A stretch of DNA of 64,000 bases from assembly GCA_030280995.1 (NCBI GenBank), contig JASXTE010000002.1, forward strand, positions 8,510,183 through 8,574,182, given 5' to 3'. Position 1 is the first letter of the stretch; every line of letters begins with the position of its first letter. Positions 7,536-63,290 of the stretch are shown here, piece after piece. The DNA comes from Hemileia vastatrix (Eukaryota; Basidiomycota; Pucciniomycetes; Pucciniales; Zaghouaniaceae). Position numbers and translations under genes: made by a program. The notes under the pieces are model-generated. The model worked only from the letters and a program-made list of their open reading frames with translations, made no database searches and was not told the DNA's origin.

Positions 7536-7586
7536 AAAATAGAGGAGGATTTAAGAAATTTAGGTTTTAGAGTAGATACACCTGAC

Positions 7587-35987: not shown

Positions 35988-36482
35988 TTATATTTTACTT
36001 ATTATTTAGTATAAGCCTTGGGACGTGATTTTTACTTTAGTACAACTAAAAATAACCAAATATTTGGGTCTGCTGCATATTAGTGGGTCATCATAACTCA
36101 GTGATTGCGGAAAAGAACCCTTATAATAATTGTACTAATTTTTTATCATAAAAATTAGGTATTTACAGTAGTAACTGTATCCAATATAAACCCAATTTCA
36201 CTTGGTATTTGGACACCAATATAACACCCAATTAAATTGGTATTTGGTTAAAGCTTGGTAAGCTACTTATTCACCCTTATAGAGGTCTAGTTAAACTTAT
36301 TATTATATTTTTAACAGATTTTTTTGAATTTTTCTTATAATTTATTTAAATAAATAAAGATATAAATTCAGGGTAAGCTCCATTGCTTTTTTATTAGTAA
36401 TATAATTGCTAATATCTTTTGTCTACTAATTCCATAGAGTTTTTTCCTTTTGTAGACGTAAAATATTGTTATTCTTAAAAAT
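35988..36482 (+). other. copy 3 leader, no gene
   Basis: Same AT-rich leader as in copy 2 (6418-6911), with only scattered substitutions. No coding signal. Confidence 0.6.
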
Positions 36483-37106
36483 ATGAGTGCTCCCCAGGAC
36501 AGTGTAAGTGAAAAGCCTGCTTATAATACCAGGTCTAAAGCTAACAAAAACTTTCCAGGACATCACCATGGAGGGTCAACAATACCCCCAGGTAGAAAGC
36601 ATGAGTATAGAGGAAAAGGACGCCCTCTTAAAAAAGATAACTATAAAAAAGACGTCTCCTCCTATTCAGGATCAACTGTCCCACCTGGCCAAACAGGTTC
36701 TGAAGCTGGAGGAATCAAAATCACTCATGTTCAAAGAGGTAGAGCAGTTGCAAAACAATTGCAAGGTAGGGTTTCAGCAGATGAATCAGGCATTGGCAGA
36801 ATTAAAGGGAGGCCAGCCCAGTCAGTCAAATCAGCAACCCCCTATCCAAGGAGGGTCAACTCACTCCCAGGAGAAAATCCTGGTAGACAAATGGAAATGG
36901 GACTGGTTTCATCAACAGTGGACAAGCCACAGTTGCAACAGGGATCCACCATCTCATCTGACTTCCTCAGCTCACCCTTACAAAGGAAAAAAGCGCCAAA
37001 AATCAGGACTGGCAACCATCCCATGGTAAGTAGATTACCCTCTCAGATTGAACATAATACTGATAATTACAATATAGGTAATTCTATTGATGTTAAATCT
37101 GTGTAA
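36483..37106 (+). CDS. leader ORF A of copy 3 (207 aa, basic)
   Basis: ATG at 36483. Intact ORF: N-terminus MSAPQDSVSEKPAYNTRSKA, a GHHHGG segment, then a long Gly/Lys/Arg/Ser-rich, probably disordered region. It stops at TAA 37104-37106. The frame immediately after the TAA stays open into gag (K I E E D L R N L ...) for about 43 codons before the first gag ATG at 37236, so readthrough would give a fused product. From 36568 to 37029 it overlaps ORF B in the +1 frame. A role as an RNA-binding Gag extension is inferred from composition and position. Confidence 0.65.
   Translation: MSAPQDSVSEKPAYNTRSKANKNFPGHHHGGSTIPPGRKHEYRGKGRPLKKDNYKKDVSSYSGSTVPPGQTGSEAGGIKITHVQRGRAVAKQLQGRVSADESGIGRIKGRPAQSVKSATPYPRRVNSLPGENPGRQMEMGLVSSTVDKPQLQQGSTISSDFLSSPLQRKKAPKIRTGNHPMVSRLPSQIEHNTDNYNIGNSIDVKSV
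36568..37029 (+). CDS. overlapping leader ORF B of copy 3 (coiled-coil)
   Basis: First ATG at 36568, second at 36601, where similarity with element 1 begins (MSIEEKDALLKKITIKK). It is in the +1 frame relative to ORF A. Predicted features: a helical Leu/Gln-heptad region (about 25-75 residues in), a Gln/Pro-rich linker, and a basic tail containing KWKWDWFHQQW. Element 1 keeps the same peptide start in the same relative frame although the nucleotides have diverged strongly, which supports true coding. Function unknown. Initiation by leaky scanning past the ORF A ATG, or a +1 shift, would be needed. Confidence 0.6.
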   Translation: MEGQQYPQVESMSIEEKDALLKKITIKKTSPPIQDQLSHLAKQVLKLEESKSLMFKEVEQLQNNCKVGFQQMNQALAELKGGQPSQSNQQPPIQGGSTHSQEKILVDKWKWDWFHQQWTSHSCNRDPPSHLTSSAHPYKGKKRQKSGLATIPW

Positions 37107-37157
37107 AAAATAGAGGAGGATTTAAGAAATTTAGGTTTTAGAGTAGATACACCTGAC

Positions 37158-40100: not shown

Positions 40101-42347
40101 GTGGCTGCAATAAAGAATATTGGCATTCCTCAAAATGTAAAGGATGTACAATCTTTTCTTAGAATGTGTGGTTATTATAGACAATATATAAAAAACTACC
40201 AATCAATTGCTGCACCACTGACCACACTGATAAAGAAATCAGAAGCTTTCATTTGGAATAATGAAAGACAACAAGCTTTTGATAAGTTGAAAGAATTTTT
40301 AATGACAGCTTCTATCTTGGTTTTACCAGATTTCCAATTACCTTTTGTATTATATACAGATGCAATTTTCATTGGACTGGGTGCTGCTTTGCATCAACAA
40401 CAACTTATTGAAGGAAAAATGTCAGAAGTAGTAATCTGCTATATTTCACGTACTCTGAGAAGTGGTGAATTGAAATATGGTGCTACTCAACTTGAATGTT
40501 TGGCAGTAGTATGGGCTCTTGAGAAGCTACATTATTACCTTGAAGACCAAAAATTTGAGTTAATAACTGACTGTAGTGCAGTTAAGTCACTCTTAAACAT
40601 GAAAACTCCTAATAGACACATGTTGAGATGGCAATTAGCTGTACAAGAATACAGAGGCCGGATGACTTTTACACATAGAGCAGGAACCTTGCACTCTAAT
40701 GTAGATCTGTTATCTAGAGTACCTCTGCCTAATAATGATGATAATCCTGCTTATGTTCCTGAGTCAGAGATTATTAACATTTATGGCATTTATATTGTAG
40801 ATCTTGAGGATGAATTTATGCAATCAATTCTTGATAATTATAATTCAGATCCTGACTTGAGTAAATTAACTACAATATTAAATGATCCATCTAATGCTTC
40901 AATGAATGTTTTAATAAAAACATTACCAATTAAGTATAAAGAGGCATTAGAAAAAGGAAAATTTTCCATTGATGATGGTTTTATATATTACAGGAAAAAA
41001 TTAAGTAATGTAATTGTAATTCCCCCTTCAATGAAGGAGTTAATGTTAAGTATATGTCATGATGATATATTAGCAGGTCATTTTGACTACCATAAAACAT
41101 TAACCAGAGTAAAAAACACAGCTTGGTGGATTAACATGTCTGAGGATGTTCAGAAATATGTTGAAACATGTGATTCTTGTCAAAAATCTAAAAGATTAAC
41201 AGGAAAAAGAGCTGGTTTATTACAACAAATTGAGCAACCAAAAGCTCCATGGGAAATCATTAACATGGACTTTGTAACAGGTTTGCCAATAGCAGGGCAT
41301 AAGAGTTATAACTCCTTCTGGGTAATAGTAGATAGATTTACAAAGATGTGTAAATGTATTCCTACCCACAAAGAGGTTTCTGCAAAGGACTTAGCTTTTT
41401 TATGGTGGACACAAATGTTAAATATAGCAGGTTTCCCCAAAGCAATAGTTTCTGACAGAGATCCTAAATTTACTTCTGAGTTCTGGACATTACTTATGGA
41501 TGTTTCAGGGTGTCAATTAAAACTTTCTACAGCACACCATCCACAGAGTGATGGGCTAGCAGAAAGAATGATACAAACTTTAGAAGATATGATAAGAAGA
41601 TATTGTGCTTTTGGTCTAAATTTTAAAGACAATGACAAATTCACGCATGATTGGGTAACCCTTATCCCAGGTTTTGAATTTGCATACAATAGTACAGTAC
41701 ATTCTGTCACTGGCAAGAAGCCATTTGAGTTGTGGTTGGGTTATGTACCTAATACCCCTGCTAAAACTCTTAATAAGTTACCTAGATTGGATATCCATCC
41801 AGGTACTAAATCTTTTCTTCAAATGCAGGAATTATGCAGAAAACATGCTCAAGAATGTATAAATAAGGCGTTTGAGTATGAAAAGAAAAGATGTGAAAAA
41901 GCCCATAAAGAACAAATGTTCAAAGAGGGTGATGAAGTCCTTATTTCCACACTACATTTCAATTTAAATGGTAATGTTAAATTGAAGGATCGATTCATTG
42001 GACCATTTGTAGTTAAAAAGATGGTTGGTAATAATGCTGTTGAGGTTATTCTATATGCACCATATGATAGAAAACATCCAGTATTTCCTATTTCCCTTAT
42101 AAAACCATACCATTCTAATGATACTGCTCTATTTCCAAGAAGATCAGGAAGGCATAAACAGCAACCTGAAGAAATAGTTGAAAAGGCAGAAATTGAAAAG
42201 ATACTTAAAAAGAGACACCTTACTAAAGAAAAGGGAGTTGAGTATCTATTAAGATTTAAAAATAAATCAAGTGAATATGACCAGTGGATTACAGAAAATG
42301 AAATCTCTGATCTTAAAAATCTCTTGAAAAAATTTAAATCTAAATGA
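37158..42347 (+). pseudogene. gag-pol polyprotein of copy 3, three frameshifts
   Basis: Same domain series as copy 2. It is broken by the TGA at 38043-38045 (shared with copy 2), a 1-bp deletion near 38218, a TAA at 39023-39025, and 1-bp deletions near 39499 and 39851. The three deletions together restore the original frame, so 39864-42347 is one open 827-codon stretch holding YIDD RT, RNase H, integrase and chromodomain. Protease LDTGA is intact (near 38850). The downstream half is almost identical to copy 2, while the upstream half differs by about 2 percent. Confidence 0.92.
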
Positions 42348-46927: not shown

Positions 46928-47373
46928 AGGGGGTATCAATGTTCAGGGATCCACAATTAGGTATCAGGGATCTTTTTCCCTGGGATCAGAAATTATTAAT
47001 TGCAGAAGATTCTTATCCACTAGCTCCAGGTCTGGTGGATAAGGAATCCATGATAATGCATTATCCTGCCTCTTATACCCAATTTCTGTTCCTAATTTCT
47101 GATACCAAACTCATCACCTCCATGATTGATTTGTAAGCAAGTCACATGACATATAATTTCAGATGCCATTCTTATGTGTCTCTTCACTCTATGCTACTTA
47201 ATTTTGGTGGCAAACACATAACATTTTTTCTCATCCTTATGTGTTTCTTCACTATATTATACTAAATTTTTGTAGCAAACACATAACATTTTTTTCTATC
47301 TACACACCCCACCTGCTCATTTGGTGGCAAATTTCCACTTCCCACTCATCACCTAAACCTTCTATGGAAAAAA

Positions 47374-48569
47374 ATGAAGCACCTCTCGACTAGGAAGAAA
47401 CTTCACTCAGCTATTAATTCTATCACTTTATTTTTAGCCACTGACTCTGATTCTGACTATGGTTTGGAAGGCACATTAGCTTATATGTCATTTCTTTCCA
47501 AAAAGCATTACATCATCCTAAGGGGGCCAAATCTTTATCATGATCCCATATATGATCTTGCCTAAATTCTTGAAATTCCTCATTTAAACTTCAAAAACCT
47601 TTTTCAAACTTTCTCAACTCATCTCCAATCATCCTATCTTCCATAATAATTCCCATAACAAACAGCATGATACTAACTTTCAACTTACTGTTGCACTATG
47701 TTACTTTGGTTAAAATGTAAATGGTTCTGCTGTAAGACATTTAGATAATCTCTTTACCATAGGATATGATACCACGATATTATACACCAAGTGCTGCATG
47801 ATTTCTATCCTTTCTCTCAAGTCTCAAACACTTGCTTGGCCAACTCCACAACAGCAACTTGAATCCTCTCAAGTAATGCAAGCCAAAGGTTTTGTCAAAA
47901 GCCTGCTCATGATGGAAACCATTATTTTGTTTTCAAAAAAAGGTTTCTTCAAAATGTTCTCCAATTTCACATCTTTCATAAACTAACTTATTATCTTCTT
48001 TGTAGATACTCTATTGCAGTTCAACTTGTCTTTTACTTCAAAAAAAAGTTTATTGCTTTTCATAGTGGCTGCCCTGGCTCATGTCATGACTCTTCTGTCT
48101 TCCAAAGAATGAGGATTTCTCAAATTCCTGACTCATATTTGACAAATCTCAGTACCTCCTCTCAGACTCAACACATGCAAGTGGAAAGTACATTATACCT
48201 GCTTTCTGTAGTACAAATTTAGAAAATGACCCCAAAACCACCTTTAATTATCACCTTGCCCAATCAAGAGTGCGGATTGAACATGCTATTGGGATTTTAA
48301 AGGGAAGATTTTCTAGTCTCCAGGAGCTCAGAATCCAATTTCCAAAAAAATTGAAAATAAAAACTGAAAATCATTGGATAATGACTTGCGTTATACTCCA
48401 CAATATCCTAGCTGACTTAAAGGATGAGTGGAATGATCTTTATGAAGAAGAGGATCCTGAACCAGCTCTGGCTCTCCCCTCCCTCGAATCACAAAACATT
48501 CATGCAACTGGCATATGCTCTGTCATTATGCCGATCACCCTCCACCATTTTGACACACAACCCTTTTAA
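47374..48569 (+). pseudogene. PIF/Harbinger transposase of element 1, decayed
   Basis: Starts MKHLSTRKKLHSAINSITLF. It shares with Harbinger 2 the segments YHDPIYDLA, QTLAWPTPQQ.LESSQVMQA, the intron near 47938-47996, HSGCPGSCHDSSVFQRM (frame-shifted in part), and the catalytic-Glu region QSRVRIEHAIGILKGRFSSL, which is intact here. The block with the first catalytic Asp is damaged. Stops and indels make it nonfunctional. Confidence 0.8.
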
Positions 48570-48616
48570 GTTTTTTTATTTCATACTCTCCAAATGTCCA
48601 CTTTTTATACTATATT

Positions 48617-50117
48617 TGTCAGCCTGAATATCTCCAGGACTGAGTAAAAAGTAACTATAAGTTATGTTAAACACATGAACTATACATGGGAATAATAAAT
48701 GAGAGTACACAAATAGTATACATAAGTAAAATTATGATAATACACAAAAAATGCCATTATAACACCTTATATACACGCATATATCCACCTTTTATAGGTC
48801 TTATGTACTTAATATTAAGTTGGAGTATGTTAGGGTAATCTTAAGAACCTTAAGTATAAGGCTACATAATTTTTAAGTACACTTAAAGCTGTTATATTCA
48901 TTGTTTTATGCAAAAAACAAGAAATGCGCTTTATTTCACTTAAAAGTTGACTATATGCGCTATAAAATTGAGAATATCAAAATTGCGCTTTGACAGATCA
49001 ATTGGGCTCATTTAGAACTATTGATTTGGCTATTTAAATGCATAAAAATAACACTTTTCAAATTTGGTGTTTTTTATGCCAGAAATGGCTTCTGTGTACT
49101 GGCCACATACTGCCTGCTTTTTTCCCGTGTGAATAGCTTCATTTTTAGCAAAGTTAGCTTTTTTCACACTATAATTACCCCACATTCTACGCCCACTGTG
49201 GGGAAACACACTAAAATAGGCGACAGGCGCTTATTTAGTGTCCTAGCTTAATTAATAATGCATTGACCTTATTTATATGCACTAATTTCATTAATAACCT
49301 CACTCTTGGCACTTTATTTCATCACCACGCTTAAATTTGCCTAATTTTAGTCAAGGATTTACCCGTGCAAGCGCCTGCCAAGAACTGCATGTAGTTACCC
49401 CACATCTCACGCTCTTTTTTAAGTTTTTGGGTGGTTTCTCAGTCAATTTTGGTTATTTTTGAATGGGAATTTCACGTAGTATAATGTCAGGATTAGCCCC
49501 ATTATTTCTACAGTCAATCCCCCTTATTATTAAGCTATTATTAACCTTAAAAAGTCTCCTTTAGTCTTTAATATTATTGTTTTATACGCATATACTCTCT
49601 TTTTGTCTTTTTCTTTAATTTTGATGGATTTCCCTTATTATTACAGGATTTTGGCGGTTGTTACTCTTCTAATTATGTCATGGGTTACTGGGAATGTTGA
49701 TGGGCATGTCTATTAGTTGTTTAGAGGCGTCATTAACTGTGTATTGGGTGGTACATCAAGGGAATCATTGGGGAACTCAGTGTGTATAAAAGGAGGAGGT
49801 TTTTGAGTTGTATTTCTTCATTCTTTATCATTACAATTCAACCCATATAACCAAATAAATTACAATACATATCAATTAGTACTTCTATAAGACTTTTGAA
49901 TAGTATCTAAATTAAATAATCTATTTTTCTACCAACTACAAAGATTGTAAGCCATATATAAGACTAGTGAGAATTATATTACTGAGACCTTTATATTTGA
50001 TTATATTTTACAACTTAGTGGATTAAAACTACAGTATTCATATAGGACCATTAAAATCTTCTAGACAACTGACTATTCAAGCTAGTTCACGTCCTTGTAC
50101 TTGACCTTTGCCTGAAA
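48617..50117 (+). mobile_element. solo LTR of the element 1 gypsy family (1501 bp)
   Basis: TGTCAGCCTGAATATC...CCTGAAA, perfect 5-bp duplication ATATT (48612-48616 and 50118-50122). It is the reverse-complement relative of the interrupted LTR at 3808-5225/14078-14154. The empty site is seen in Harbinger 2 near 57520 (TACTTTATTCACTTGG), which confirms both the borders and that the LTR came after the Harbinger duplication event. Confidence 0.9.
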
Positions 50118-50576
50118 ATATTCACTTGGCTCGGTGTTTTTGTTTTTTGAATATTCATTTTCATTTTGAATTTACAAGAAATATCTCCTTTTTGGATGTC
50201 TGATTTGTTTTCATTTTCCAGCTTAACATGAAAGCACATATGTTCTGAAATCGCATATTTTTTCACTGTTTTTTTCATTCATCCCTCATATCCATTTCCT
50301 CCTATCCTCAAACATCCCTAAAACAATTTGGTTTCACATATTTTATCATCTCATCACTCCAGGTAAGTCATTTTACTCATTTCTTTTGATTTTTTGTTTG
50401 CTAATTATAATTTTTTTTCTGTTTTCTTTTTTTTGTAAGTGGTTCTTTTTGTGGTTCTCAAGGTTAAATTAACTCCCTTTTTTTGTTCTTTCTCTCCCTT
50501 CTTTCTCTTTTTTTTACTTTCCATCATTCCCTCTTTATCCCTCCTTGGCCTGGTCATGATCCCACCTGTTTGGTGT
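50118..50576 (+). other. Harbinger 1 spacer between transposase and Tet-like gene
   Basis: Corresponds to 57523-57960 of Harbinger 2 (for instance CACTTGG, the GAATATTCATTTT phrase and TCTCCAGGTAAGTCATTTTA). Pyrimidine-rich; it may include 5' untranslated exons of the oxygenase gene, as the conserved CAG|GTAAGT at about 50361 hints. No ORF is assigned. Confidence 0.5.
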
Positions 50577-51250
50577 GCTCATCACCACCTTTCCCTTCTC
50601 TTTGGCTGCCTCTCACCCCCCTTTCCTTCCTCCTTTGCTGCCTTAAACCCCCCTTTTCCCCCTATTACTCCCTCAAACCCCCCTTTTCCTCCCCCCTATT
50701 ACTCCCTCAACACCCCTACACCTGCTTCAAACCTTCCCTATAACCCCCTCAAAACCACCCCTCAAACCACCCCTATACCCACTTCAAAGCCCCCCCTATA
50801 GCCTCCTCATATCCCCCACACCTGTATCAAACCACCCCCCTCATCACTACTTACTTATTAACAAACAATTGATAACAATTGTTCATTAACTAATAAACAA
50901 TTAAAAGCAATTGTTTGTTAATATAATGAATATGAAGGAGGGGGTAAGGGGGATTTGGGGAGTTTTCAGGAGGGGTTTGGAAGAGGTTTGGGGGGTTTTA
51001 AGCGTGTGCAGGTGGGGATTGAGGGAGGGGGGGTTTAAGTGTGTGTAGGTGGGGATTGAGGGGGGGATCAAAGGGGATTGGGAGAGGGTTTGGGGTAGTG
51101 TTTTGGAGTGGTTTGATGAGGGTTTGTGGTGATCTTGGAGAGGGTTTGGGGGGTATTTTGGTGGTGTTTGGTGAGGATTTTGTGGGCTTTGGAGGGAATT
51201 TAGAATGTGCTTTGGAGATTTTTTTCAAGGGGAGAAAGGGGACTAAAAAG
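50577..51250. repeat. C-rich then G-rich low-complexity block around a CAATTG palindrome
   Basis: About 260 bases of C-runs (CCCCCCTTTTCC-type, 50590-50850) are followed by TTGTTTGTTAATA/TATTAACAAACAA-type inverted repeats with AACAATTGTT at 50858-50922. About 320 bases of G-runs (GGGGTTTGG, GGGGATTGAGGG) follow, 50937-51250. The two arms are roughly inverted. The block is missing from the matching position of Harbinger 2. The proline-rich ORFs here are composition artefacts. Confidence 0.75.
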
Positions 51251-51524
51251 GGAGTAATGAAAACAAAAATAGAAAACATTTACAGGGATCAATGAGGGTG
51301 CAATTTAAAAATTGAAAGAAATGTTTTATTAATATTTAATTTTTTTTTCTCTTTTTTGTCCAGAATTAACCAAAAAAAAACTTGTCAAATTGAAGTAAAT
51401 AAACAATTATTCTTATTTAATATTTGATGAAAATCTTAATGGTTATTTAATTTAAATTGTGTGAATTATTAATTATTTTTTTTAAAAAAAATTGACATTT
51501 TTTTGACCAGTAAATAATAAATTT

Positions 51525-51925
51525 TTCAGAAAAAAAATTTCTGTTTATTCTGATTCAAGACCTACGCCTCTATCCTTATCATTATCTTCTTTATCATCTT
51601 CTTTGATTTCAAATTCATTTCAATGATCAAAAAAAAATTCAGAAAATTTGTCAAAAAATTAAAATTCATTCAAAAAAATATCAGAAAATAAAATTTCTGT
51701 TTATTCTGATTCAAGCCTTACACCCCTATATTCATAATTATCTTCTTTATTATCTTTTTTGATTTCAACTTCATTTCAATCATGAAAAAAAAAATTCAGA
51801 AAAATTGTCCAAAAATGAAAATTCATCAAAAAAAATTTCAGAAAAAAAAATGTCTATTTCTTCTGATTCAAGCCTTGTACCTCTATCTTCATCTTCTTTG
51901 ATTTATACTTCTTTTCAATCTTCTT
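51525..51925 (+). repeat. three tandem ~160-bp units at the start of the Tet-like gene
   Basis: TCAGAAAAAAAAATTTCTGTTTATTCTGATTCAAG-type units occur at about 51529, 51690 and 51838. The third one is open (MSISSDSSLVPLSSSSLIY). They appear to be duplications of the serine-rich N-terminal coding segment. Confidence 0.7.
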
Positions 51926-53027
51926 CAAAACCTTTAACAATAAAAAATGATGATCAAACTTATCAATGTAAAAGATATTTAAGAAAGAAAATTCACTTGG
52001 ATCTTCTATTTGGCCATATATCAAACAACAAGTATTTCAAAACTAAAGTCAATAAAAAAGATAAATATCCCAGGAAGTTACTAGAAGATATTGAATATCT
52101 AACCAAATTAGGAGGTGATGAAGTTAAGGTAGTATTCAGTAATACTTTTAAAACTTAAATTATTTACAAAAATCATTCTTTTGATGGAGTAAAAGATGAA
52201 TCCTTTAATAACTATCTGATCTCATCTCTATACTATATCAAATGGCTTTGGTTTGATTACAAATTAAAAATAAGAATTTGTTGGGTGGTATCATGATTGG
52301 TTTTGGATGGAGACCAGAATCAATTAAAGTTTATTCTCTTGGTAAGTCAAATTTTTTTTGTTTTCATTCTTAATATACTTCACTTATTTAATTTTATAGG
52401 CATCTATTCATTATTTATAAATTTATCTAAAGTGGGAAAAATAATGATTTTCAATTATGGGACTCCTTACCTTCTTTAATTCCTTTCTGGCTCTATGACT
52501 CAAAAAACTCTGTAACAAAGCCTTTGAAACCAATCATGAACTTGAAATCAGAGTTGGGATTCCAAATTGGTGTGACTCCAAGTAGGAATAGATTAGCAGG
52601 GATTATCTCTTATTATCTAATGCTATAATTACCCATTCTGGTTTTCATAACAAGATTCATACTGATAAGAATGACACCAAATACCATACTTTTGGGGATT
52701 TTCTCTTATATTAATCCTATTACTGGACAACCTACTCCTTCCCCAGCTAAAATAAAAGGTCATGGGTTATAATTTCTGTATCACAACTGTATAATCAACT
52801 TTGGATTGGGAACTGGAATAACCAAAACTATTTGGAACTCTTCTAAGGATAATCACCAAACAACAAAAGCTCCCCCTGGCTTCAAATCTTGTCATGACTT
52901 TACTCATTTTGGCTGCTCCTTCCAAGTTAGTCAAAAACTAATCCAAAAAATCAACAAGGTAAAAAAATATGGTAAAAGTTATAAATTTAATAAAACTTTA
53001 AGTATATCTAAAAAGTATGGGGATTAG
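51805..53027 (+). pseudogene. Tet/JBP-like 2OG-Fe(II) oxygenase in Harbinger 1, decayed
   Basis: A serine-rich N-terminal ORF (51805-52158) is followed by broken core sequence. VGIPNWCDSK and ITHSGFHNKIHTDKNDTKY (about 52555-52680) hold the HxD iron-binding pair as HTD. An open piece from 52806 reads GTGITKTIWNSSKDNHQ...FTHFGCSFQVS, with the distal His. Frameshifts separate these parts. The order and motifs match the better preserved copy in Harbinger 2, so the gene belongs to the transposon and is not a chance neighbour. The reading stops at the exon end KINK|GTAAAA. Confidence 0.7.
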
Positions 53028-53586
53028 TAAAGTCATCAAATATTTTTTATTCTTTCATAAATTTTAAATAATTAAATCTGATATTTAAACTTACTAAACT
53101 AAAGAAATGGGCCAACAACCTTGTGTTGCATATGAGGTAATCATTATAAAGTTAATTTGTTTCATGGGGTTCATCTTTCCTATACCTGTGGAAAGTCCCA
53201 ACATTAGTTTATAGACTTAGTCTGCATTTTGGCTTGAGGAATTGACATTACTTTAAAACTAGTAAGTTTGAGATATCTTATTTATTTATTTATTAATTTA
53301 TGGAATTATCTTAAATTTTGGTGATTTTCACCCCTTACTTCAATTAAATGCAGGGGAGGGTATTGCCAAATTTTTAAAACATATATAAAGTCTTGTTTAC
53401 TTAGCTGAATTTGAAAAGAAAATTTAATGATTTGAATGTAAAGATGAAAAAATGTATGAGTTTTTCAAATTTTTGCAAAAAAAATTATCTAGGATAAATA
53501 TATTTAAAAAGTCAGCACATATGAAATTATCACCAAAAAGAAATATAAAAAAATTAATTTAACCAAACAAAAAACTAATCTAAAAT
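53028..53586. other. Harbinger 1 region after the Tet-like gene
   Basis: Short exon-like pieces shared with Harbinger 2 occur here: GCCAACAACCTTGTGTTGCATATGAG|GTAATC near 53110, and CCTATACCTGTGGAAAGTCCCAA near 53180. A single copy of the CACCCCTTACTTCAA..AATGCAGGGGAGGGTATTGCCAAA unit (about 53330) follows; that unit is amplified in Harbinger 2. The final exons of the oxygenase may lie here. Confidence 0.45.
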
Positions 53587-53847
53587 CACTACGCAATATA
53601 GGGGGTGGACTTGCTAGCAAGTCCTCAACCTGAACTCAGATGGAACTCAGATGGAACTCAGACTGAACTCATACTGAACCCATACTGAACTCTACTTGAA
53701 CACCCACCTAAAACTGTTCTGCTGAGTGGTGTTCATCCCTGATTGAATGGTTCCTTTATCAATAGCTCAATGTGTGTTCAATCTATGGTGAGTTTGGGTC
53801 CAAGGTTGCGGACTTGCTAGCAAGTCCGCCCCCCATATTGTGTGGTG
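53587..53847. mobile_element. CACTA-type MITE, copy iii (261 bp), in Harbinger 1
   Basis: Nearly identical to copy ii (19591-19851), perfect 3-bp duplication AAT (53584-53586 and 53848-53850), both 18-bp palindromes intact (53607-53624 and near 53811-53828). Inserted after the Harbinger copy had formed. Confidence 0.92.
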
Positions 53848-54094
53848 AATGTTGCAATAAAGTGTCTCAAATATCAGTGAGGAGTGTGTGCTGAGAATTG
53901 ATTATTAGCTTTAATGCATTCTATCAAGAAAACTTTAAAAATGAAATAAAAAAAAACTAGTTAACAAAAATTTTCATTAAGAAATCGATTTCCTCAATAG
54001 ATTTATTAGCTTTAACACATTCTCTCAAGAAATCTTTCTTTTTTAAACCATCTTCAAGTTGATACTTGAGTTTTATTTGATCCAATAGAAAATT

Positions 54095-55069
54095 TTACTC
54101 TAGAGCCTTTTCCCCTTTCTTTATCTTGAATTTCTTCACCTCCAAGTCATGTGCCCTCTTATCCCTCTTTAAAGAAAGCTCAAATTTCTTCTCCTCCAAG
54201 TCTTTTACCCTCCCATCTCTCTGTAAAGAAAGATTGAATTTCTTCTCCTCCAAGTTTGGTGCCCTATCATCCCTTTGTAAAGAGAACTTGTATTGTTTCT
54301 TTTGAACATTGGGAGTATCTCTTGCAAATTCAACTTTACCTAGAGTAAAAAGGAATATTAACAAAAGAAAAGAAAAGCTCACCTAATTATTAACAGGTAT
54401 GCTATCACTTACCAGATTCAAGTTTCTCCAGAAAATCATCAATGGAAGAAAAAGGGGTTTGGGAAAAACTATCTCTGATTTGCTTTCTATGACTGTTGAA
54501 ATTAAAAGTAGTTGATTGTCTTTGCTTTTTTTAGAGGTAACATTTTCCTCTTCATCATTGATGCTGGCTTCAGACTCACTTGCTTGAGGATCTTGGTTTC
54601 ATTCATTAGCCTTTCTAGAAATAAACATAACAAAACAACTAGACAAGAAATAAAAACTTACTGTAGTGGGATTGCATTGGTTTATATCACCATAAGGATT
54701 TATTGGAAAGCTATCTATATTTATTGAATTTAGAACAGGGGAGGCTTGAGTGGAGGAGGAGGATTGGAAAAGATTTGTTTTGAAATCATGTTTGGAGATA
54801 TAATCTTCACCATCAAAAATGTTGGCAGGATTAACAACAGCTTGCTCTCCAAAAATAGCATCCATCTCTTTAAAGTATGAAAATAGAGATTCAAGTTTAT
54901 CACCTATGGATTTCATGCCCTTACTGATATTGATGTTGGTAATACCAAAAAATAGTAGAAAATGAAAGTGTCTTTGCCTTTGTGTATTTGCCTCTGTAAT
55001 TCTTGAAACGTTCAGACATCTGATTATGCAAAAGATAAATCCTTCCTTTTCTCTTATTTTGTAATTCAT
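54095..55069 (-). pseudogene. Harbinger 1 Myb-like / coiled-coil accessory protein, decayed
   Basis: Two minus-strand ORFs. The upstream one (55069-54599) contains SKGMKSIGDKLESLFSYF then EMDAIFGEQAVVNPANIF, the conserved second half of the DNA-binding region, and DGEDYISKHD. The downstream one (54382-54095) has three 18-residue repeats of the type KF.LSLQRDGR..DLEEK. Same arrangement as in Harbinger 2, but with the N-terminal helices frame-shifted. Confidence 0.65.
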
Positions 55070-55620
55070 TGGCCATTAGAAGATAGCCATTGACTTTTGA
55101 TGCAGGGCCTGTCCTACTTTAGTTGCATTATCAGTACCAAAACAAGAATCATAATTAATTTTTATTTTTAGCCAGTTGATAAGTATGAGATGATCATCTT
55201 TTTTTTTGTTGAAAAGTCATTTATTTCTCAGCTGAGCAGGTGAATGAGGGAGTAATGGGATTTGATGAACAACTGGGGGAAGGCTGCCTTTGAGAAGATC
55301 TATGATGACAAGACATGTTGAGATATTTAAAGATGAAAAGGAGAAGGAAAAAACGGATGAGATGGGGAGGGGTTTTGAATGGAAATGAATAGACAGGATG
55401 GGAGTGTGCAGAAAGTTAGGGAGGCTGGCACATCTAGAAAGTTGTCCAAGATGTGGTTATGAAAAATAGAGGATAAAAATTTTGGATAGAGGTGACAATT
55501 GACACGTAAAAGGTCTAATAACCCAATTAATAGCAAAAATAATTGTGGAAGATAATTGGGGTATAATCATTTTTATCCACAATTAATTTAATTTTGTATT
55601 GGTCAACATTGATACCCCCT

Positions 55621-55828
55621 ATTTTTAGTATATATTTCTGAAATGGAAGAAGAATCAATAAAATTCATTTTAGTTTCATATGAAAAATAATTTGAGTTTA
55701 AAAATTATCAAAAATTCTTAATGACCCAAAAAATACATCAATACAACCCTTAATAAAGACTTTTCCTCAGAAGTACTAAAGTGCTTTATAAGAAGGGAAT
55801 TTCTCCATTGAAGATAGATATATTCATT
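55621..55828 (+). pseudogene. element 4 block 4: RNase H to integrase linker
   Basis: Only 208 bases between the two Harbinger elements. Read forward it gives EMEEESIKFIL..YEK and VLYKKGISPLKID, matching DLEDEFMQSILDNYN and EALEKGKFSIDD of copy 2. This shows that both Harbingers sit in the same old gypsy element. Confidence 0.7.
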
Positions 55829-55912
55829 AGGGGGTAACAATGTTCAGGGATCCGCAATTAGGGATCAGGAATTTTTTTTTCCAGGATCAGACATTATTAA
55901 TTGCGGAAGATT

Positions 55913-55944
55913 CTTATCCACTAGCCCCGGGGCTAGTGGATAAG
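55913..55944. repeat. perfect 32-bp palindrome near the left end of Harbinger 2
   Basis: CTTATCCACTAGCCCC followed directly by its reverse complement. The same place in Harbinger 1 (about 47012-47044) has a mutated version. Around it are CCGCAATTA and TAATTGCGG motifs, which recur as CCGCAATTAATTTAATTGCGG at 61868-61888 near the right end. Likely transposase or accessory-protein binding sites. Confidence 0.8.
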
Positions 55945-56208
55945 GAATCCACAATAATGCATTATCCCACCTCTTAAACCCCAATTTCCATTCCTAATTC
56001 CTGATCCCAAACTCATCTCATCCATGATGGATTTGAAAGAAAGTCACATGACTCATAATTGCTAATGCCATCCTTAAGTCTTTCCTCACTCTATGCTACT
56101 TAATTTTGGTGGCGAAAACTTAAGCTTTTTTTCTATCTACACACCCCAACTGCACATTTGGCGGTGAATTCCCACTTCCCTCATCACTTAACCCTTCCAC
56201 CGGCAACA

Positions 56209-57471
56209 ATGAAACACCTCTCTACTAGGAAGCTACTTCACTCAACAATGAATGCTATCACTTTTCTTTTAGTTCTTTACTATAAATCTGACTCTGATTT
56301 GGAAGATGCTTTAGCTTATATGTGTTTTCTTTCCAAAAAGTGTTACATCATCACCAGGGGGCCAAATCTTTATCATGATCCCTGATATGATCTGGCCTCC
56401 ATTCTCAAGATTCCTCATTTAAACTTCACACAACTTTTTAGAACTTCTCCCGATTCTTTCTTCAAACTTTATCAACTCATTTCTGAACATCCTATCTTCC
56501 ATAACAATTCTCATAACAAACAGCGTAATACTGCCATCCAACTTGCTGTTGCTCTATGTCGCTTTGGCTCAAATGTAAATGGTGCTTCCATAAGACGTTT
56601 GGATAATCTCTTTAACATAGGATATGGTACCGTGATATTATACACCAAGCGCTGTATGATTGCTATCCTTTCCCTCAAGTCTCAAACTCTTGCTTGGCCA
56701 ACTCCAGAACAGCGACTTGAATCCTCTCAAGTAATGCAAGCTGAAGGTTTCCCTGGCTGTGTAGGATTTTTTGATGGCACAACTATACCTTTGAGTCAAA
56801 AGCCTGCTCATGATGGCAACTATTACTTTGATCGCAAAAAAAGGTTTCTTCCAAATCTTCTCCAAGTTCTCATCTTTTACAATCTAACTTTTTATCTTCT
56901 TTCTAGATACTCTATTGCCGTTCAACTTGTATGTGATCTCAATAAAAAATTTATTGCTTTTAACAGTGGCTGCCCTGGATCATGTCATGACTCTTCCATC
57001 TTCCAAAGAATGAGTATTTCTCAATCCCCTGACTCATACTTTGACAAATCTCAGTACCTCCTTGCAGACTCAGCATATGCAAGTGGAAAGTACATTATAC
57101 CTGCTTTCCGTGGTGCAACTTCAGAAAATGACCCCAAAACTTCCTTTAATTATCACCTTGCACAATCAAGAGTACAAATTGAACATGCTATAGGTATTTT
57201 AAAAGGATGATTTTCTAGTCTTCGGGAGCTCAGAATCCAATTTCAAAAAAAATTGGAGATCAAAACTGCAAATCATTGGATCTTGACTTGCGTAATACTC
57301 CACAATATTCTAGCTGATTTAAAGGATGAGTGGAATGATCTTTATGAAGAAGAGGATCCTGAACCACCACCGGCACTCCCCTCCCTTGATTCACAAATCA
57401 TTCAATCAACTGGAATACGTTCCATTATAATGCCAATTACTCTCCAACATTTCACTTTGCAATGCTTTTAA
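56209..57471 (+). pseudogene. PIF/Harbinger DDE transposase of Harbinger 2
   Basis: Nuclease of the HARBI1/PIF type, expected to cut at the inverted repeats. True ATG at 56209 (MKHLSTRKLLHSTMNAITFL). Catalytic triad: Asp in GCVGFFDGTTIPLSQ (about 56769), Asp in LLADSAYASGKYIIPAF (about 57067), Glu in SRVQIEHAIGILKG (about 57182). An intron at 56844-56906 (63 bp, GT...TAG) joins FDRKKR to YSIAVQLVCD, as the family alignment demands. TGA codons at about 56383 (Ile in Harbinger 1) and 57208 (Arg in Harbinger 1) break the frame. It ends at 57471. Near complete but probably inactive unless the stops are suppressed. Confidence 0.85.
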
Positions 57472-58311
57472 TTTTTAATTTTTACGTTTTCATACTTTCT
57501 AAATGTCCTCTTTGTGTACTTTATTCACTTGGTTTTGTATTTTGGTTTGTTGAATATTCATTTTGATTTTGAATTTACAGTGAATATCTTTTTTTTGGAT
57601 GGCTCATTGGTTTTCTTTCACCAGCTCAGCATGAAATCGCATATTTTCTGAAATTGCATATTTTGTCAGTGATTTTTTTTTTCATTCATCCCTCATATCC
57701 TTTTCCTATTCTCCTCCAACATCCTTCAAACAATTTGGTTTCATTCATTTTGTCATCTCATCTCTCCAGGTAAGTCATTTTATTCTTTTTTTTGATTTTT
57801 TGATTACTAATTATAATTTTTTTTGTTTTTTTCTGTTTATTTTTTTTTATCTAAATTTTTTTTGTAAGTGGTTATTTTGGATTTCAATGGTATAATTAAC
57901 CTTTTTTTTCTCTCCCTCTTTACTTTATTTTTTAGCTCCATCACCCTACTCTTCATCCCTCCTTGGCATTGTCATTATCCCCCCTTTCCCTTATTTCACT
58001 TTTTTTTGGCTCCATTTCATTGAAACACATACATTGCACATTCTTTATGCATTTCACTTACTCCATATACAATTTCCCCACAATTCCAACATCAATCTTT
58101 CTCACTCTATTTTTCCTACTTTTCAATCAAGGTAAGTTTCATCTCCTTTTTTTCATGCCTATATGATATCTCATTCCTTTTATGAAAACTTCATACTTAA
58201 ATATATGTATGACTCTTATCTGGATAACAGTGAACTTATAAAACTCCTTTTGATCTCATCTTCATTACCACTTTTCAGGTTTTTGTAAAATTTTGAAAAT
58301 CAGACTCGGAA
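57472..58311 (+). other. Harbinger 2 spacer, possible 5' exons of the oxygenase gene
   Basis: AT- and pyrimidine-rich. Contains TCTCCAG|GTAAGTCATTTTAT near 57768 and CAATCAAG|GTAAGTTTCATCTCC near 58125, both good splice donors, so noncoding or short coding 5' exons may lie here. No ORF assigned. Confidence 0.4.
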
Positions 58312-58625
58312 TTAGGGTTAGGTTTATTCAAATCTAATGTTCTTTTTACTGAAGATTCTCCTGAAGGCTACCTTTTATTTCCTGCAAACAGATTTGAATT
58401 TGATTCAGTGGTTGCTGAGATATTGACAGTTAAAGCTGAGCCTTTTTTTCAATTTAAATTTTTATTTCATTTTTTTATGTAATTAATTAGGGTTAGGTTT
58501 ATTTAAATCACATATCCTTTAACTGAAGATTCTAATAAAGCATATCTTTCATTTCCCACAAACAGGTTTGAATTAGGTTCAGTGGTTGCTGAGATTTTGA
58601 CCTTTGAAGTTGAGCCTTTTTTCCA
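58312..58625 (+). repeat. duplicated coding-like segment upstream of the Tet-like domain
   Basis: Two direct copies about 178 bp apart (starting AGGGTTAGGTTTATT near 58313 and 58491). The first is open and reads GLGLFKSNVLFTEDSPEGYL then NRFEFDSVVAEILTVKAEPF. The second has TEDSNKAYLSFPTNRFELGS and SVVAEILTFEVEPFFQ in a shifted frame. The differences keep the peptide similar, which suggests a duplicated exon of the oxygenase N-terminus. Confidence 0.55.
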
Positions 58626-58708
58626 AATTTCACTCGTCTTATTTCACATTTTTATATTGCATATTTAGAGGATAAGGATTCTGAAACTCTTATATGATTA
58701 TTATCTAG

Positions 58709-59268
58709 GCATATATTTGTTGGTCAAGAATATCACTAAAGCTCAAAAAGATGAAGTTTTTCGCTTATGGGACACTCTACCTTCCTTTGACTCTTTTCTT
58801 GCTTTTCGACTCAAAAAGCTCTGTAATAAAGAATTTGAAGAAAATCATGAACTTGCAACCAAAGTTGGAATACCGAATTGGTGTGACTTCAAATGGGAAG
58901 ATATCAGCCACGAATATCTTTTATTTTCTAATGTTATTATCACTCATTCTGGATTCCACAATAGGATTCATATTGATAGGAATGATGCCAATTTTCTTAC
59001 TTTTGGTATATTCTCATATATCAATCCGATAACTGGCCACCCAATACCATCTCCAGCTAAAATCGAAGTACATGGTTTATATTTTCCAGACCACCGGTGC
59101 ATCATTGATTTTGGTTTGGGAAATGGTATCATCAAAACTATTTGGAATTCATCTAAGGATAATCATCAAACGACCAAAGCTCCTCCTGGTTTGGAATCCT
59201 GTCAAGATTTCACACATTTTGGTTGCTCATTTCAAATCAGTAATAATTTGATAAAAAGAATCAATAAG
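58709..59268 (+). CDS. Tet/JBP-like 2OG-Fe(II) dioxygenase domain, core exon, in Harbinger 2
   Basis: Open core exon, from a TATCTAG acceptor (58708) to a GTAAAG donor (59269); about 186 codons. Enzymes of this family oxidise 5-methylpyrimidines in DNA using iron and 2-oxoglutarate. Numbering from 58717: FRLWDTLPSFDSFLAFRLKK near the start; GIPNWCDFKW at 51-60; ITHSGFHNRIHIDRNDANFL with the HxD pair His85 and Asp87; FGIFSYINPITG; GLYFPDHRCIIDFG at 120-133; KTIWNSSKDNHQ with the distal iron-ligand candidate His150; and FTHFGCSFQIS at 165-175, where I would expect an Arg for 2-oxoglutarate but see His167. The overall pattern matches Tet-like proteins of rust fungi as I remember them. The first and last exons are uncertain. 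Confidence 0.75.
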
Positions 59269-59600
59269 GTAAAGTTATTCGATTTAAAAAAACTTTATCT
59301 AGATCAAAAAAGTATGGGGATTAGAGTTGTCATCGAAAATTTTATATTTTTTCATAAATTTTTAATAAATATTTTTATATATCAATTTTCTCAATTAATG
59401 TGATGAGCCAACGACCTTTGGTTGTATAACAGGTAATCATGATAACATTTATTTGTTTGATTTGTGAGGTTCCTCTTGCCTATACCTGTAGAAAGTCCCA
59501 AACTTTTGTTTCTAGACTTGGTCTGCATTTTGGCTTGAGGAATTGTCATCACTATAAACTAGGGAAATTGATATATATTAGATATTGATTTAATAATTTA
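59269..59600 (+). other. downstream exon-like pieces of the Tet-like gene
   Basis: The frame stays open without homology to 59403, then come short segments conserved with Harbinger 1: CCAACGACC near 59407, CCTATACCTGTAGAAAGTCCCAAA near 59481 and TTGGTCTGCATTTTGGCTTGAGG near 59518. Probable last exons, not resolvable by eye. Confidence 0.4.
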
Positions 59601-59616
59601 TGGATTTATATTAAAT

Positions 59617-60060
59617 TTAGATGACTTCCACCCCTTACTTCAATAAAATTCAGGGGGGGGGTATTGCCAAATTTTCAAATCTGACATGTGAAATTGATGA
59701 CTTAGAAAAATTTTGGTGATACCCACCCCTTGCTTCAATAAAATGCAGGGGAGAGTATTGCCAATTTTTTAAAACAGATATAGAATTTTTTTGACTTGTA
59801 AATATTTTGGTGATACCCATCCCTTACTTCAATAAAATTTATGGGGGGTTTTGCCAAAATTTCTTATAAGACTTGTGTAATTCTTGACATGTAAGAATTT
59901 TTGGGATACCAGTAAAATGCAGGAGGTAGTAAAGCCAAATTTTCATATAAGACTTTCAAGATTCATGATATGAAAGAATTTTTGTGATACCCACCCCTTA
60001 CTTCAAAAAAATCCAGGGGTGGAGGAACGTCAAATTTTCAAAGGAGACATGAAAATTTTA
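59617..60060. repeat. five ~95-bp tandem repeats in Harbinger 2
   Basis: Units start GAT(A)CCCACCCCTTACTTCAATAAAAT.CAGGGG near 59617, 59717, 59812, 59906 (deleted start) and 59986. Harbinger 1 has one copy at about 53330. Amplified noncoding sequence between the convergent genes. Confidence 0.8.
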
Positions 60061-60278
60061 TTTAAAAAAAGTGGGAGAGTAATGAAATAAAGGAAATTAT
60101 TGGAAATTTTATGTACAAATAAATATGAACAGTTGAAGTGTGAGAGAAATAAAAAAAACTAGTCATCCAACAATCTCTTTAAATGTTCACTTTCCTCAAC
60201 AGATTTATTAGCTTTAACACATTCTATCAAGAAATCTTTCTTTTTGGAATTTTCTTCATGATCAAACTTATATTTCAT

Positions 60279-61559
60279 CTACTCTAATAGGTTTTGATGT
60301 TCGAGTGTTTTCTCCTCTTTTTTTGATTTTTCAATACTTAGAGTTAACTCAAACTTCTTCTCCTCCAAATCTTGGGCCCGACCATCTTTCTGTAAAGAGA
60401 GCTTGTACTTCCTCTCCTCCAAATCTTGGGCCTGATCATCCTTCCGTAAAGAGAGATTGTACTTCCTCTCTTCCAAATCTTGTAGCCTATCATCCCTCCT
60501 TAAAGAGAGCTCATATTTTTGCTTTTCAAACTTTAGAGTCTCTTTAGCAGCTTCCACTTGTTCTAGAGTGATAAGCAATGTTAACAATAAGTAGAAGAAA
60601 AGCAGAGTAAAGTATTAATAGGTATGGTATCACTTACCAGCATCACGTTTCTTTAAAAATTGTTCCATAGACAAAAAAGGGGTTTGTGATGAAGTATCAC
60701 TTTTTTGTCTTCTTTGGGAGTGGAAATTTAGACTACTTGAAGCCCTTTGCTTTTTGTTCAACATAGCATTTTCCTCCTCATCATTGTCACTAGCTTTAGA
60801 CTCAGTTGATTGTGGGTCCTGGGCTTGTTCATCAGCCTTTTAAGAAATAAGAAAATCTAAGTAAATAAAAAAAAGTATTGATAAGATAAAAGAAAAAAAA
60901 CAGACCTGAGTTAGATTGGGTTGGGTTAAATCGCCAATAGGATCAATAGCAAAGCTATCTAGGTTCGTAGAATCTAGAAGAGGGGAGGCTTGAGTGGAGG
61001 AAGAGGATGGGAAAAGATTTGCTTTGACATCATGTTCGGAGATAGGATCTTCACCATCCAACATGTTTACAGGATTAACATCGGCTCGCTCTCCAAAAAT
61101 TTCATCCATCTCTTTAAAGTAAGGACATAAAGTTTCAAGTTTATCGTCTATGGATTTTATGCCCTTAGTTATATCATTGTCAGTAACCTCAAAACCAGTG
61201 GAAGATGAAAGAGCCTTTTCCTTCTTGTATTTTGCTCGATAATGCTTGAATTTTTCAGACATCTGTTTAGGCAAAAGATCAATCCTTCCCTTGGTCTTAT
61301 TCCGTAATTCATTTGCCATTAGAAGATAGCCATTAACTTTTGATGCGGGGGGCCCTCCTACTTTAGTGGCATACTCAGTACCAAAACAAGAATCATAGTT
61401 AGATTTGGTTTTCAGCCAGTTGATAAGAATGAGATGTTCATCTTTTTTTAATTGAACAGTCTTTTATTTCTCGGCTGAGCAGGGGAAAGAGGAAGTAGTG
61501 GGAATTGAAGAACAACTGGGTGATGGCTGCCTTTGAGAAGATCTAGGATGACGAGGCAT
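60279..61559 (-). pseudogene. Harbinger 2 Myb/SANT-like and coiled-coil accessory protein
   Basis: Convergent to the other genes. Exon a runs from an ATG at 61559 (MPRHPRSSQRQPSPSCSS) or a later one at 61319 to 60906; exon b 60836-60638; exon c 60562-60279; introns 69 and 75 bp (GT...AG). Exon a encodes a trihelix-like domain, LILINWLKTKSNYDSCFG through MANELRNKTKGRIDLLPKQM, then the family hallmark CPYFKEMDEIFGERADVNP. Exon b is acidic and serine-rich. Exon c holds 18-residue charged repeats (KY.LSLRKDD.AQDLEER, three clear copies) predicted as coiled coil. PIF/Harbinger elements usually encode such a Myb-like DNA-binding partner of the transposase. An in-frame TAA near 61467 is also present in Harbinger 1, so the true start or splicing is unclear. 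Confidence 0.7.
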
Positions 61560-61910
61560 GTTATTATAAATGAAGATGAAAAGGAGCAGAAACAAGCAGA
61601 TGAGATAGCGAGATGAAAAGGAGCAGAATCAAATAGATGAAATGGGGAGAAATTCTGAGCAGATAGAATGAACAGGATGGGATGAGAATGGAAGTGCGCA
61701 GCAAGGTAGAAGGCTGGGATATCCAGAAAGTTGTCCAAGATGTGGTTATGAAATATTGAGAATAAAAATGTCAGATAAGATGTGAACATTGACACATAAA
61801 GTGTCTAATAAACCAATTATTAGCAAAAATAATTGTGGAAGATAATTGGGGTATGCAGATTATTTTCCGCAATTAATTTAATTGCGGATTGGTCAACATT
61901 GATACCCCCT

Positions 61911-63290
61911 ATTAAAGGAGGAAGCTCATTAATGTAACATTCATTTCCTTTTAAATAGAGGAAATTATTTTGAAAATTTTCCATGATGAAATATCAGCTG
62001 GGCATTTTGATCTAAAAAACACTAAGAAGACCAAAAAATACAGAAAAGTGGATTAATATTTCCAAAGAAGAAAGGTTTTTAGTTGAATCCTGCCATTATT
62101 TCAAGAAGAATAAAAGAATTGTTAGTAAGAGAGCATTATTTATGCAAAAAATCAAAGACTTAATAAAAATAAAAATAATTAACACGGACTTTTCTACTTA
62201 TTTTCTTGCTGCTGAAGAGGAGATTTCCAATTCACTATTATATTATTGTAGATATATTTATAAGAATGTGTAGATTAACTCCAACTCATAAAGAGTTTTA
62301 CACAAGATAATTGGATTTCTATGGTGGTTAAATATGTTTAACTCAGAAGCATATCCAATAGCTATTATCTTTGAAATAGATCCTCAGTTTACTTCTTAAT
62401 TTTGAATAAAACTTATGGATATTTGTGGTTTTGAATTAAAATTTTCAACTGCCCATCAACCTCAAACTGATGGATCAGCTGAGTGAAAAAATTAATACAT
62501 TAGAAGACATGATAAGAAAATATTGTGCTTTTGGGCTAGAATATAAGAGCAATGAATGATTTTCTAATGATTGGATAGTCATATTTCCTGGTCGATAGTT
62601 CTCCTATAGCAGTACTGTTAATTCAGTGACTGAAGGGAAAAATTTGGAGCTCTTCCTTGGCAATGTATCAAACACTCCTGCTCAATTTTTTAATAATAAT
62701 TCATGAAAGATTGATACTCATCCTGCTGCTAAATATTTTCTTCAAATTAAATAATAATGCAGGAAACATGCAAATAATTTTTTCAAAAATCTTTTGAATA
62801 TAAAGAAATAATATGAGATAAATCTCATAAATATTGCACTTTTAATGAAGGAGATCAAGTATTAACATTTACAGTAAATTTTAATATATAAGGTAACAAT
62901 AAATTAAAAGATCTTTTTATTGGACCTTCTATTTTTAAAATAATTATTGGAAATAATGCACTTGAAGTCTTATTGTATTCTCCTTATGATAGAATAATCT
63001 TCTGCTTTAACTTTCATTATTGAAACCTTATAAATTTAATGATGATTTATTTCCAGAAAGATGAAGGCTCAAAGAGGTTCCTTTAGAAATAAATGAAAAT
63101 AATGATATTTAGAAATTTATAAATAAAAGAAATCTCAAAAGACAAAAGGGTACAGAGTATTCAAAAAGATATAAAGGAAAACTTACTGAAGTTGAAAGAT
63201 GGATAACTGAAAAAGATATCAACAATTTACAAACAATTTTTAATAAATTCATAAGAAAAAATTATAATATTTTTCTATTGTTTTTCTTAG
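61911..63290 (+). pseudogene. element 4 block 5: integrase and chromodomain
   Basis: Resumes directly after Harbinger 2. HDEISAGHFDLKNT (about 61982-62020) is the integrase zinc-finger start, followed by C..C remnants, a TAHQPQTDGSAE-type catalytic-Glu region (about 62450-62485), a YSSTVNSVTEGKN..EL.LG block (about 62600-62660), and a C-terminal chromodomain-like EYSKRYKGKLTEVERWITEKD (about 63150-63215). Many stops. The chromodomain tail confirms chromovirus affiliation. Confidence 0.8.

What the first reader, a model, noticed from the sequence alone, without database searches (positions are those of the whole stretch)
55829..61910. PIF/Harbinger transposon carrying a Tet/JBP-like DNA dioxygenase
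Between inverted repeats with target duplications lie a DDE transposase, a Tet-like 2OG-Fe(II) oxygenase core with HxD and distal His, and a Myb-like gene. Tet/JBP genes in basidiomycetes are known to be linked with KDZ-type transposons (established); I do not know of a description in a Harbinger. An enzyme able to oxidise methylated bases inside the element could counter methylation of the element or mark its insertion sites (inference).
Basis: partly seen in the sequence, partly recalled or inferred. Interest (0 to 1): 0.88.

Follow-up and report, generated by a model that had tools for sequence, protein, structure and literature searches.

The report
Harbinger transposon with swappable TET gene
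A family of jumping genes in what is likely a rust fungus carries, in some copies, a gene predicted to encode a TET-type DNA-oxidising enzyme; that pairing was already published in 2025, but the copies in this genome show a three-base target duplication, and less diverged, likely younger, sister copies lack the enzyme gene.

Summary
The anatomy is real. 55829-61910 is a PIF/Harbinger element with 16-bp inverted repeats, a DDE transposase, a Tet-like 2OG-Fe(II) oxygenase exon (PF20515, E 9e-27, HxD and distal His) and an opposite-strand gene with a weak Myb/SANT match. It is not new in kind: Kojima (Dec 2025, PMC12730594) described TET+ Harbinger elements (PHISTA) in six rust species. This copy is broken. 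New here, from the 748-Mb host genome: (1) 12 of 12 elements seen with both ends have matching 3-bp flanks (7 ATT, 5 AAT): the duplication is AWT, as in Pangu (ANT), not PHISTA's TA; (2) 7 of 8 third-gene proteins match Myb_DNA-bind_4, weakly; (3) the slot between transposase and third gene varies: of 20 copies chosen by transposase, 7 show TET, 11 run past the slot without it, 2 are undecided; (4) TET-less groups are the least diverged; (5) on a shared 640-nt stretch CpG mutation excess is about equal with and without TET, so no lasting protection of the carrier is visible. Mechanism, inferred: cut-and-paste element with an optional TET gene that would act against silencing in trans.

The parts
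55826..55828 (.). target duplication ATT, 5' side
   Evidence: matches 61911-61913; 12 of 12 elements seen with both ends have matching AWT flanks
55829..55844 (+). 5' terminal inverted repeat
56209..57471 (+). transposase gene (DDE: D 56773, D 56935, E 57181); intron-like 63-nt in-frame insert about 56844-56906; in-frame stops at 56383 and 57208
   Evidence: DDE_Tnp_4; alignment with homologues; positions; homologues 53-54% in Puccinia
57985..58707 (+). segment between transposase and oxygenase exon, without alignable counterpart in the neighbouring copy E1; holds a tandem pair (58341-58455, 58515-58629)
58708..59271 (+). Tet-like 2OG-Fe(II) oxygenase exon; HxD 58969-58977, distal His 59164
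   Evidence: PF20515 9e-27, profile 50-211 of 211
60330..60590 (-). third gene, coiled-coil-like repeat exon (54-nt units)
61076..61463 (-). third gene, Myb/SANT-like domain; stop at 61464 in this copy
   Evidence: PF13837 1.8e-4, below cut-off; 7 of 8 family members match at E up to 1
61895..61910 (-). 3' terminal inverted repeat
61911..61913 (.). target duplication ATT, 3' side
46928..55620 (+). second, older element E1 with same ends and gene order; its oxygenase has stops

Best explanation
By its transposase the element is a PIF/Harbinger-type DNA transposon, likely of a rust fungus and expected to move by cut-and-paste, that carries a Tet-like oxygenase gene in a variable slot between its transposase and its Myb/SANT-like gene; the enzyme is predicted to oxidise methylated cytosine and would thereby ease silencing of the family. 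Shown: ends, 3-bp AWT duplication, gene order, the HxD/His motif, TET-bearing and TET-less copies with transposases of one family. Inferred: the transposase, helped by the Myb-like protein binding the ends, inserts at A-W-T; the oxygenase acts in trans on many copies, which would explain how TET-less copies could spread. The copy in the finding is itself broken and would move only with help.
For: Pfam matches; DDE residues in alignment with Puccinia, Austropuccinia and other homologues; 12 of 12 TET-chosen loci hold the genes in order, 9 of 12 with both ends in view; matching AWT flanks in 12 of 12 elements seen with both ends: those 9, the two in the window, one TET-less copy; 19 of 30 oxygenase exons stop-free, HxD in 26 of 30, distal His in 30 of 30, omega 0.39 (0.26-0.63); omega 0.37 (0.25-0.67) over 13 elements; TET seen in 7 of 20 and missing past the slot in 11 of 20 transposase-chosen copies, 2 undecided.
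Against: No activity, transcript or methylation data. Omega values are biased low: copies were picked by protein similarity, and the 12 full loci came from stop-free rows. Pfam positions 1-45 or so of the oxygenase are not matched, and the 5' exon of this form is unknown; another form in the family has an upstream exon that Pfam does not recognise. The structure model was useless (pLDDT 32.6) and no solved TET was found by sequence. The Myb match is below Pfam's cut-off wherever a score was printed. The TET-bearing elements themselves show strong CpG mutation excess, and on the shared 640 nt the excess does not differ with TET. TET-less groups are the least diverged.
Confidence: 0.72

Rival explanations
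1. It is an ordinary member of Kojima's PHISTA lineage (TA duplication, third protein without Myb/SANT), and the differences seen here are only in how the ends and domains were called.
For: Transposase 53-54% identical to Puccinia proteins; same three genes; TA next to GGGGG..CCCCC in all 12 elements, because AWT|A and T|AWT always give TA.
Against: The middle base of the duplication agrees on both sides in 12 of 12 (7 ATT, 5 AAT), which a TA duplication does not predict; Myb_DNA-bind_4 found in 7 of 8 third proteins, weakly.
Confidence: 0.45
2. The oxygenase is a passenger: captured, tolerated and lost without serving the element.
For: TET-less copies with the same kind of transposase are common in the sample and least diverged; one form, including this copy, has no recognisable N-terminal exon; equal CpG mutation excess with and without TET on the shared stretch.
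Against: Omega below 1 and HxD/His mostly kept; between E1 and E2 the exon has 26 of 44 fourfold sites changed but only 50 of 370 first and second positions, meaning long purifying selection before E1 decayed.
Confidence: 0.25
3. The oxygenase serves the host, not the element.
For: Only that TET/JBP enzymes can act widely in a genome (Kojima's discussion, for other fungi).
Against: 12 of 12 fetched loci are inside the element; at least 150 places in the genome, 44 of 150 with stops (counted by eye).
Confidence: 0.03

Closest known systems
PHISTA, TET+ PIF/Harbinger of Pucciniales (Kojima 2025, PMC12730594)
   Same: Harbinger-type DDE transposase, TET/JBP gene and a third gene inside one element; rust-type transposase; TET- relatives also reported
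   Different: PHISTA is defined by TA duplications and its third protein is said to lack Myb/SANT; here a 3-bp AWT duplication and a weak Myb/SANT match. Sequences of the published families could not be compared
Pangu group of PHIS (Han et al. 2015, PMC4482050)
   Same: 5'-ANT-3' duplication and termini starting AG
   Different: no TET mentioned in the passages and section read; that paper's Pangu section found no known motif in the second ORF, while its discussion lists Myb/SANT; clade membership of this transposase not tested
Dileera/KDZ, hAT7, IS3EU, EnSpm, ESTA, Helitron TET+ elements (Kojima 2025)
   Same: TET gene in a rust DNA transposon
   Different: other transposases

Membership tests
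PIF/Harbinger (PHIS) superfamily | DDE transposase of the DDE_Tnp_4 type | tested here: met
   2.3e-19 in this copy; 4.8e-25 and 2e-25 over the full 158 positions in two open copies
PIF/Harbinger (PHIS) superfamily | second gene with Myb/SANT domain | tested here: inconclusive
   7 of 8 proteins match PF13837 at E up to 1, best 6.7e-4, below cut-off where a score was printed; no convincing solved-structure match
PHISTA | TA target duplication | tested here: not met
   3-bp AWT in 12 of 12; TA is contained in every junction; no empty site was examined
PHISTA | TET/JBP gene inside the ends | tested here: met
   this copy, E1 and 12 of 12 TET-chosen loci; absent past the slot in 11 of 20 transposase-chosen copies
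PHISTA | transposase falls in the PHISTA clade | not tested
Pangu | ANT duplication | tested here: met
   AAT or ATT in 12 of 12; definition
Pangu | termini starting AG or GG | tested here: met
   AGGGGG (one end AGGGAA in L043)
Pangu | transposase in the Pangu clade | not tested
   no labelled reference set at hand
TET/JBP dioxygenases | match to a Tet-like 2OG-Fe(II) profile | tested here: met
   PF20515 9e-27, positions 50-211; 6.9e-30, positions 46-211, in another copy
TET/JBP dioxygenases | HxD...H metal site | tested here: met
TET/JBP dioxygenases | double-stranded beta-helix fold | tested here: inconclusive
   model pLDDT 32.6
TET/JBP dioxygenases | oxidation of 5-methylcytosine | not testable with these tools
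   needs biochemistry
KDZ transposons | KDZ transposase | tested here: not met
   Pfam at E up to 1 gives only DDE_Tnp_4, DDE_Tnp_1 and Plant_tran

The most novel reading that the evidence does not exclude
The slot between transposase and Myb-like gene is an exchange site: TET genes are swapped in, cut short and dropped within one family, and TET-less siblings now spread as cheaters on a TET enzyme supplied in trans by other copies, a public good inside one transposon family. The same data would mean that PHISTA's TA duplication is really a 3-bp ANT one, moving TET+ Harbingers next to Pangu.
Probability: 0.3. Interest if true: 0.65.

Novelty: new variant of a known kind. Interest (0 to 1): 0.45.

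Why it matters
Transposon-borne TET enzymes are a proposed way for mobile DNA to undo silencing; I know of no test of it inside one family (no search was made for that point alone). Here one genome holds TET-bearing and TET-less copies with closely similar transposases and, where both ends were seen, the same ends, which is a natural comparison: methylation, expression and copy number of the two kinds can be read from existing data types. The 3-bp duplication also asks for a second look at how the published TET+ Harbinger group was delimited.

Tried and rejected
Chance repeat: rejected by shuffles. KDZ element: rejected, transposase is DDE_Tnp_4. TET homologues in the protein database: none at E 1e-3 among 25 candidates, although that database holds rust proteins. 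Viral contigs: none by protein; one stretch with the terminal motif (L001) showed no relative of the genes at tblastn E below 0.1, taken as chance. Solved structures: no TET hit, ferritins at E 0.23 or worse; third protein none or one unrelated chain at 0.76. AlphaFold without alignment: unusable for the oxygenase, poor for the Myb-like domain (pLDDT 49.3); no fold search was run on them. NCBIfam: only IS5_4 at 25 bits, under its cut-off. The first dN/dS run over 30 loci was wrong because minus-strand loci were not turned; it is replaced. In one search the rows for the oxygenase and the Myb domain are artefacts (an E2 deletion; a length not divisible by three), corrected. My first reading was a TA duplication; the second batch of loci overturned it. 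E1 and E2 alone suggested that E2 had the family's usual oxygenase gene; searches show a longer form with an upstream exon.
Full report
What is there. The stretch 55829-61910 starts and ends with a 16-bp inverted repeat (one mismatch) flanked by ATT on both sides. Inside lie, on the + strand, a DDE transposase (56209-57471; DDE_Tnp_4 2.3e-19) and an exon of a Tet-like 2OG-Fe(II) oxygenase (58708-59271; PF20515 9e-27), and on the - strand a gene with a weak Myb/SANT match (9e-4, under Pfam's cut-off) and a coiled-coil-like repeat exon. The oxygenase keeps HxD (58969) and a distal His (59164); the transposase keeps D, D and E (alignment).

This copy is broken: transposase stops at 56383 and 57208, a stop at 61464 near the start of the third gene, and 13 bp fewer at the end of the oxygenase exon than in the 12 other aligned copies. 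Three of 13 aligned copies, this one included, have a stop at the 57208 codon; the transposase stretch 56386-57468 is open in 5 of 13 and the Myb-like stretch in 6 of 13. So less damaged copies exist.

A second copy, E1 (46928-55620), lies 208 bp upstream with the same ends, flanks ATT/ATT and the same gene order. Its oxygenase is decayed. Between E1 and E2 the oxygenase exon differs at 26 of 44 fourfold sites, against 38 of 151 in transposase and Myb-like part (Fisher 5e-5; with the coiled-coil exon added 43 of 163, 1e-4), while four non-coding parts differ at 229 of 1387 sites. Against E1, E2 and the 12 other copies all show the same: 54-62% of fourfold sites changed in the oxygenase, 8-28% in the transposase, 17-28% in the Myb-like part. 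The exon in the two elements is therefore older than the elements around it, which points to exchange of the TET gene (inference); upstream of it the two elements show only short chance-like matches.

Whole genome. The window lies in a 748-Mb assembly. The oxygenase exon gave 150 scored places out of 15,581 first-look candidates, at 87-100% identity; counted by eye, 106 of 150 have no stop. From this list I fetched 12 loci at greater length, all from stop-free rows. Twelve of 12 contain transposase, oxygenase and third gene in the same order (L037 has only part of the transposase); 9 of 12 show both ends; of the other three, L040 was cut by the stretch fetched, and L033 and L037 lack the 5' part. 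Of the 30 best oxygenase places (this copy included), 19 are stop-free, 26 keep HxD and 30 the distal His; omega is 0.39 (bootstrap 0.26-0.63). Over 13 elements omega is 0.37 (0.25-0.67) for the oxygenase, 0.49-0.75 for four pieces of the transposase, three of them with intervals that include 1, and 0.53 (0.36-0.70) for the Myb-like part. These values are biased towards conservation of the oxygenase because the copies were found by its protein sequence.

Target duplication. The 9 loci with both ends plus E1 and E2 have matching 3-bp flanks: ATT/ATT in six, AAT/AAT in five. A twelfth element, without TET, has ATT/ATT. If only TA were duplicated, the middle base would agree on both sides in all 12 with a chance of about 1 in 792 (worked out by hand from 7 ATT and 5 AAT). 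So the duplication is 3 bp, AWT, and the element begins with A and ends with T; TA appears at every junction as a by-product. No empty site was examined.

Reverse test. A search with the transposase gave 141 scored places out of 15,517 candidates, 133 without stops by eye. I fetched 3 kb downstream of 20 of these 141, spread down the list. With tblastn at E 1e-5, TET is seen in 7 of 20; 11 of 20 reach sequence downstream of the TET position without any TET (10 of them with parts of the third gene); 2 of 20 show neither. One of these two carries a reading frame that in other copies lies upstream of TET. In the 9 of 11 TET-less copies that I looked at, the slot holds short repeats instead. One TET-less copy was seen with both ends, 4,970 bp apart, its transposase as a match and everything downstream of it; about 330 bp upstream of the transposase match were not fetched. 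A further form has TET with an upstream exon ending in ...GFGWRPGFVKGYSLG; in the one such copy compared, the oxygenase exon is 93.7% identical to that of E2 and 76.5% to that of E1, so E2's form looks like one that lost or exchanged its upstream exon.

Does carrying TET protect the carrier? In the 13 TET-bearing elements C-to-T differences are 19.2% at CpG against 2.5% at other C, more at TCG (25.3%) than at other CpG (16.2%), as expected of methylated CpG. On the same 640 nt the CpG:other ratio is 13.8 and 16.8 in two TET-bearing groups (13 and 4 copies) and 14.6 and 15.9 in two TET-less groups (6 and 4 copies, 10 of the 11). Over longer stretches, which are not the same in the four groups, it is 7.7 and 9.0 with TET and 19.8 and 8.3 without; the 19.8 would fit protection, but the stretches differ. 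This is a weak test; it gives no clear support for lasting cis protection and does not bear on trans action. Pairwise divergence on the same 640 nt is 2.8% and 2.1% with TET, 0.7% and 0.5% without; over the longer stretches 4.5% and 3.0% against 0.75% and 1.25%. The least diverged copies seen lack TET. Copies were picked by similarity to E2's proteins, so this needs an unbiased count.

Third protein. Seven of 8 proteins (five other copies, this copy, two metagenome homologues) match Myb_DNA-bind_4 at E up to 1, best 6.7e-4. No match passed the cut-off where scores were printed. I call it Myb/SANT-like, not Myb/SANT.

What is known. Of Kojima 2025 (PMC12730594) I saw the abstract, passages, the results up to the start of section 3.2.1, section 3.4, the methods, the figure legends and the first part of the discussion. 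It reports 15 TET+ Harbinger families in five Puccinia species and Austropuccinia psidii, names the lineage PHISTA after TA duplications, states that the third proteins lack Myb/SANT, notes TET- relatives and transfer of TET genes between elements, and proposes escape from methylation silencing. Its supplements and figures were not open to me. In the rows listed by four paper searches (20 of 160, 10 of 4,968, 2 of 2 and 10 of 11) no other title describes TET in a Harbinger; those papers were not opened, and the library lacks most subscription journals. Han et al. 2015 (PMC4482050; passages and one section) define Pangu by ANT duplications and termini usually starting AG or GG, which this family meets; its clade was not tested.

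Verdict. The finding is real but its claim to be new is not: TET+ Harbingers are published.

Noticed in passing
7012-12779 and 36462-42347: Two Gypsy-type retrotransposon copies 98.7% identical, yet with CpG observed/expected of only 0.08-0.09, against 0.31 in E2 and 0.14 in E1: young elements already poor in CpG.
   Followed up: partly
33754-33953: A 200-bp element with the same terminal core but other inner sequence, possibly a non-autonomous relative; its flanks (AAT and TAT) do not match.
   Followed up: partly
48616-50119: About 1.5 kb inside E1 that E2 lacks, 84% similar to 3810-5220 on the other strand: likely a nested insertion.
   Followed up: no
G000, oxygenase listing: Of 44 listed oxygenase places with a stop, 37 have a TGA (counted by eye), in keeping with loss of CpG in CGA codons (inference).
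   Followed up: no
L035:7133-8000, L034:1-484: Further fragments of the same family lie beside complete copies, as E1 lies beside E2 (L034 was turned in that script).
   Followed up: no
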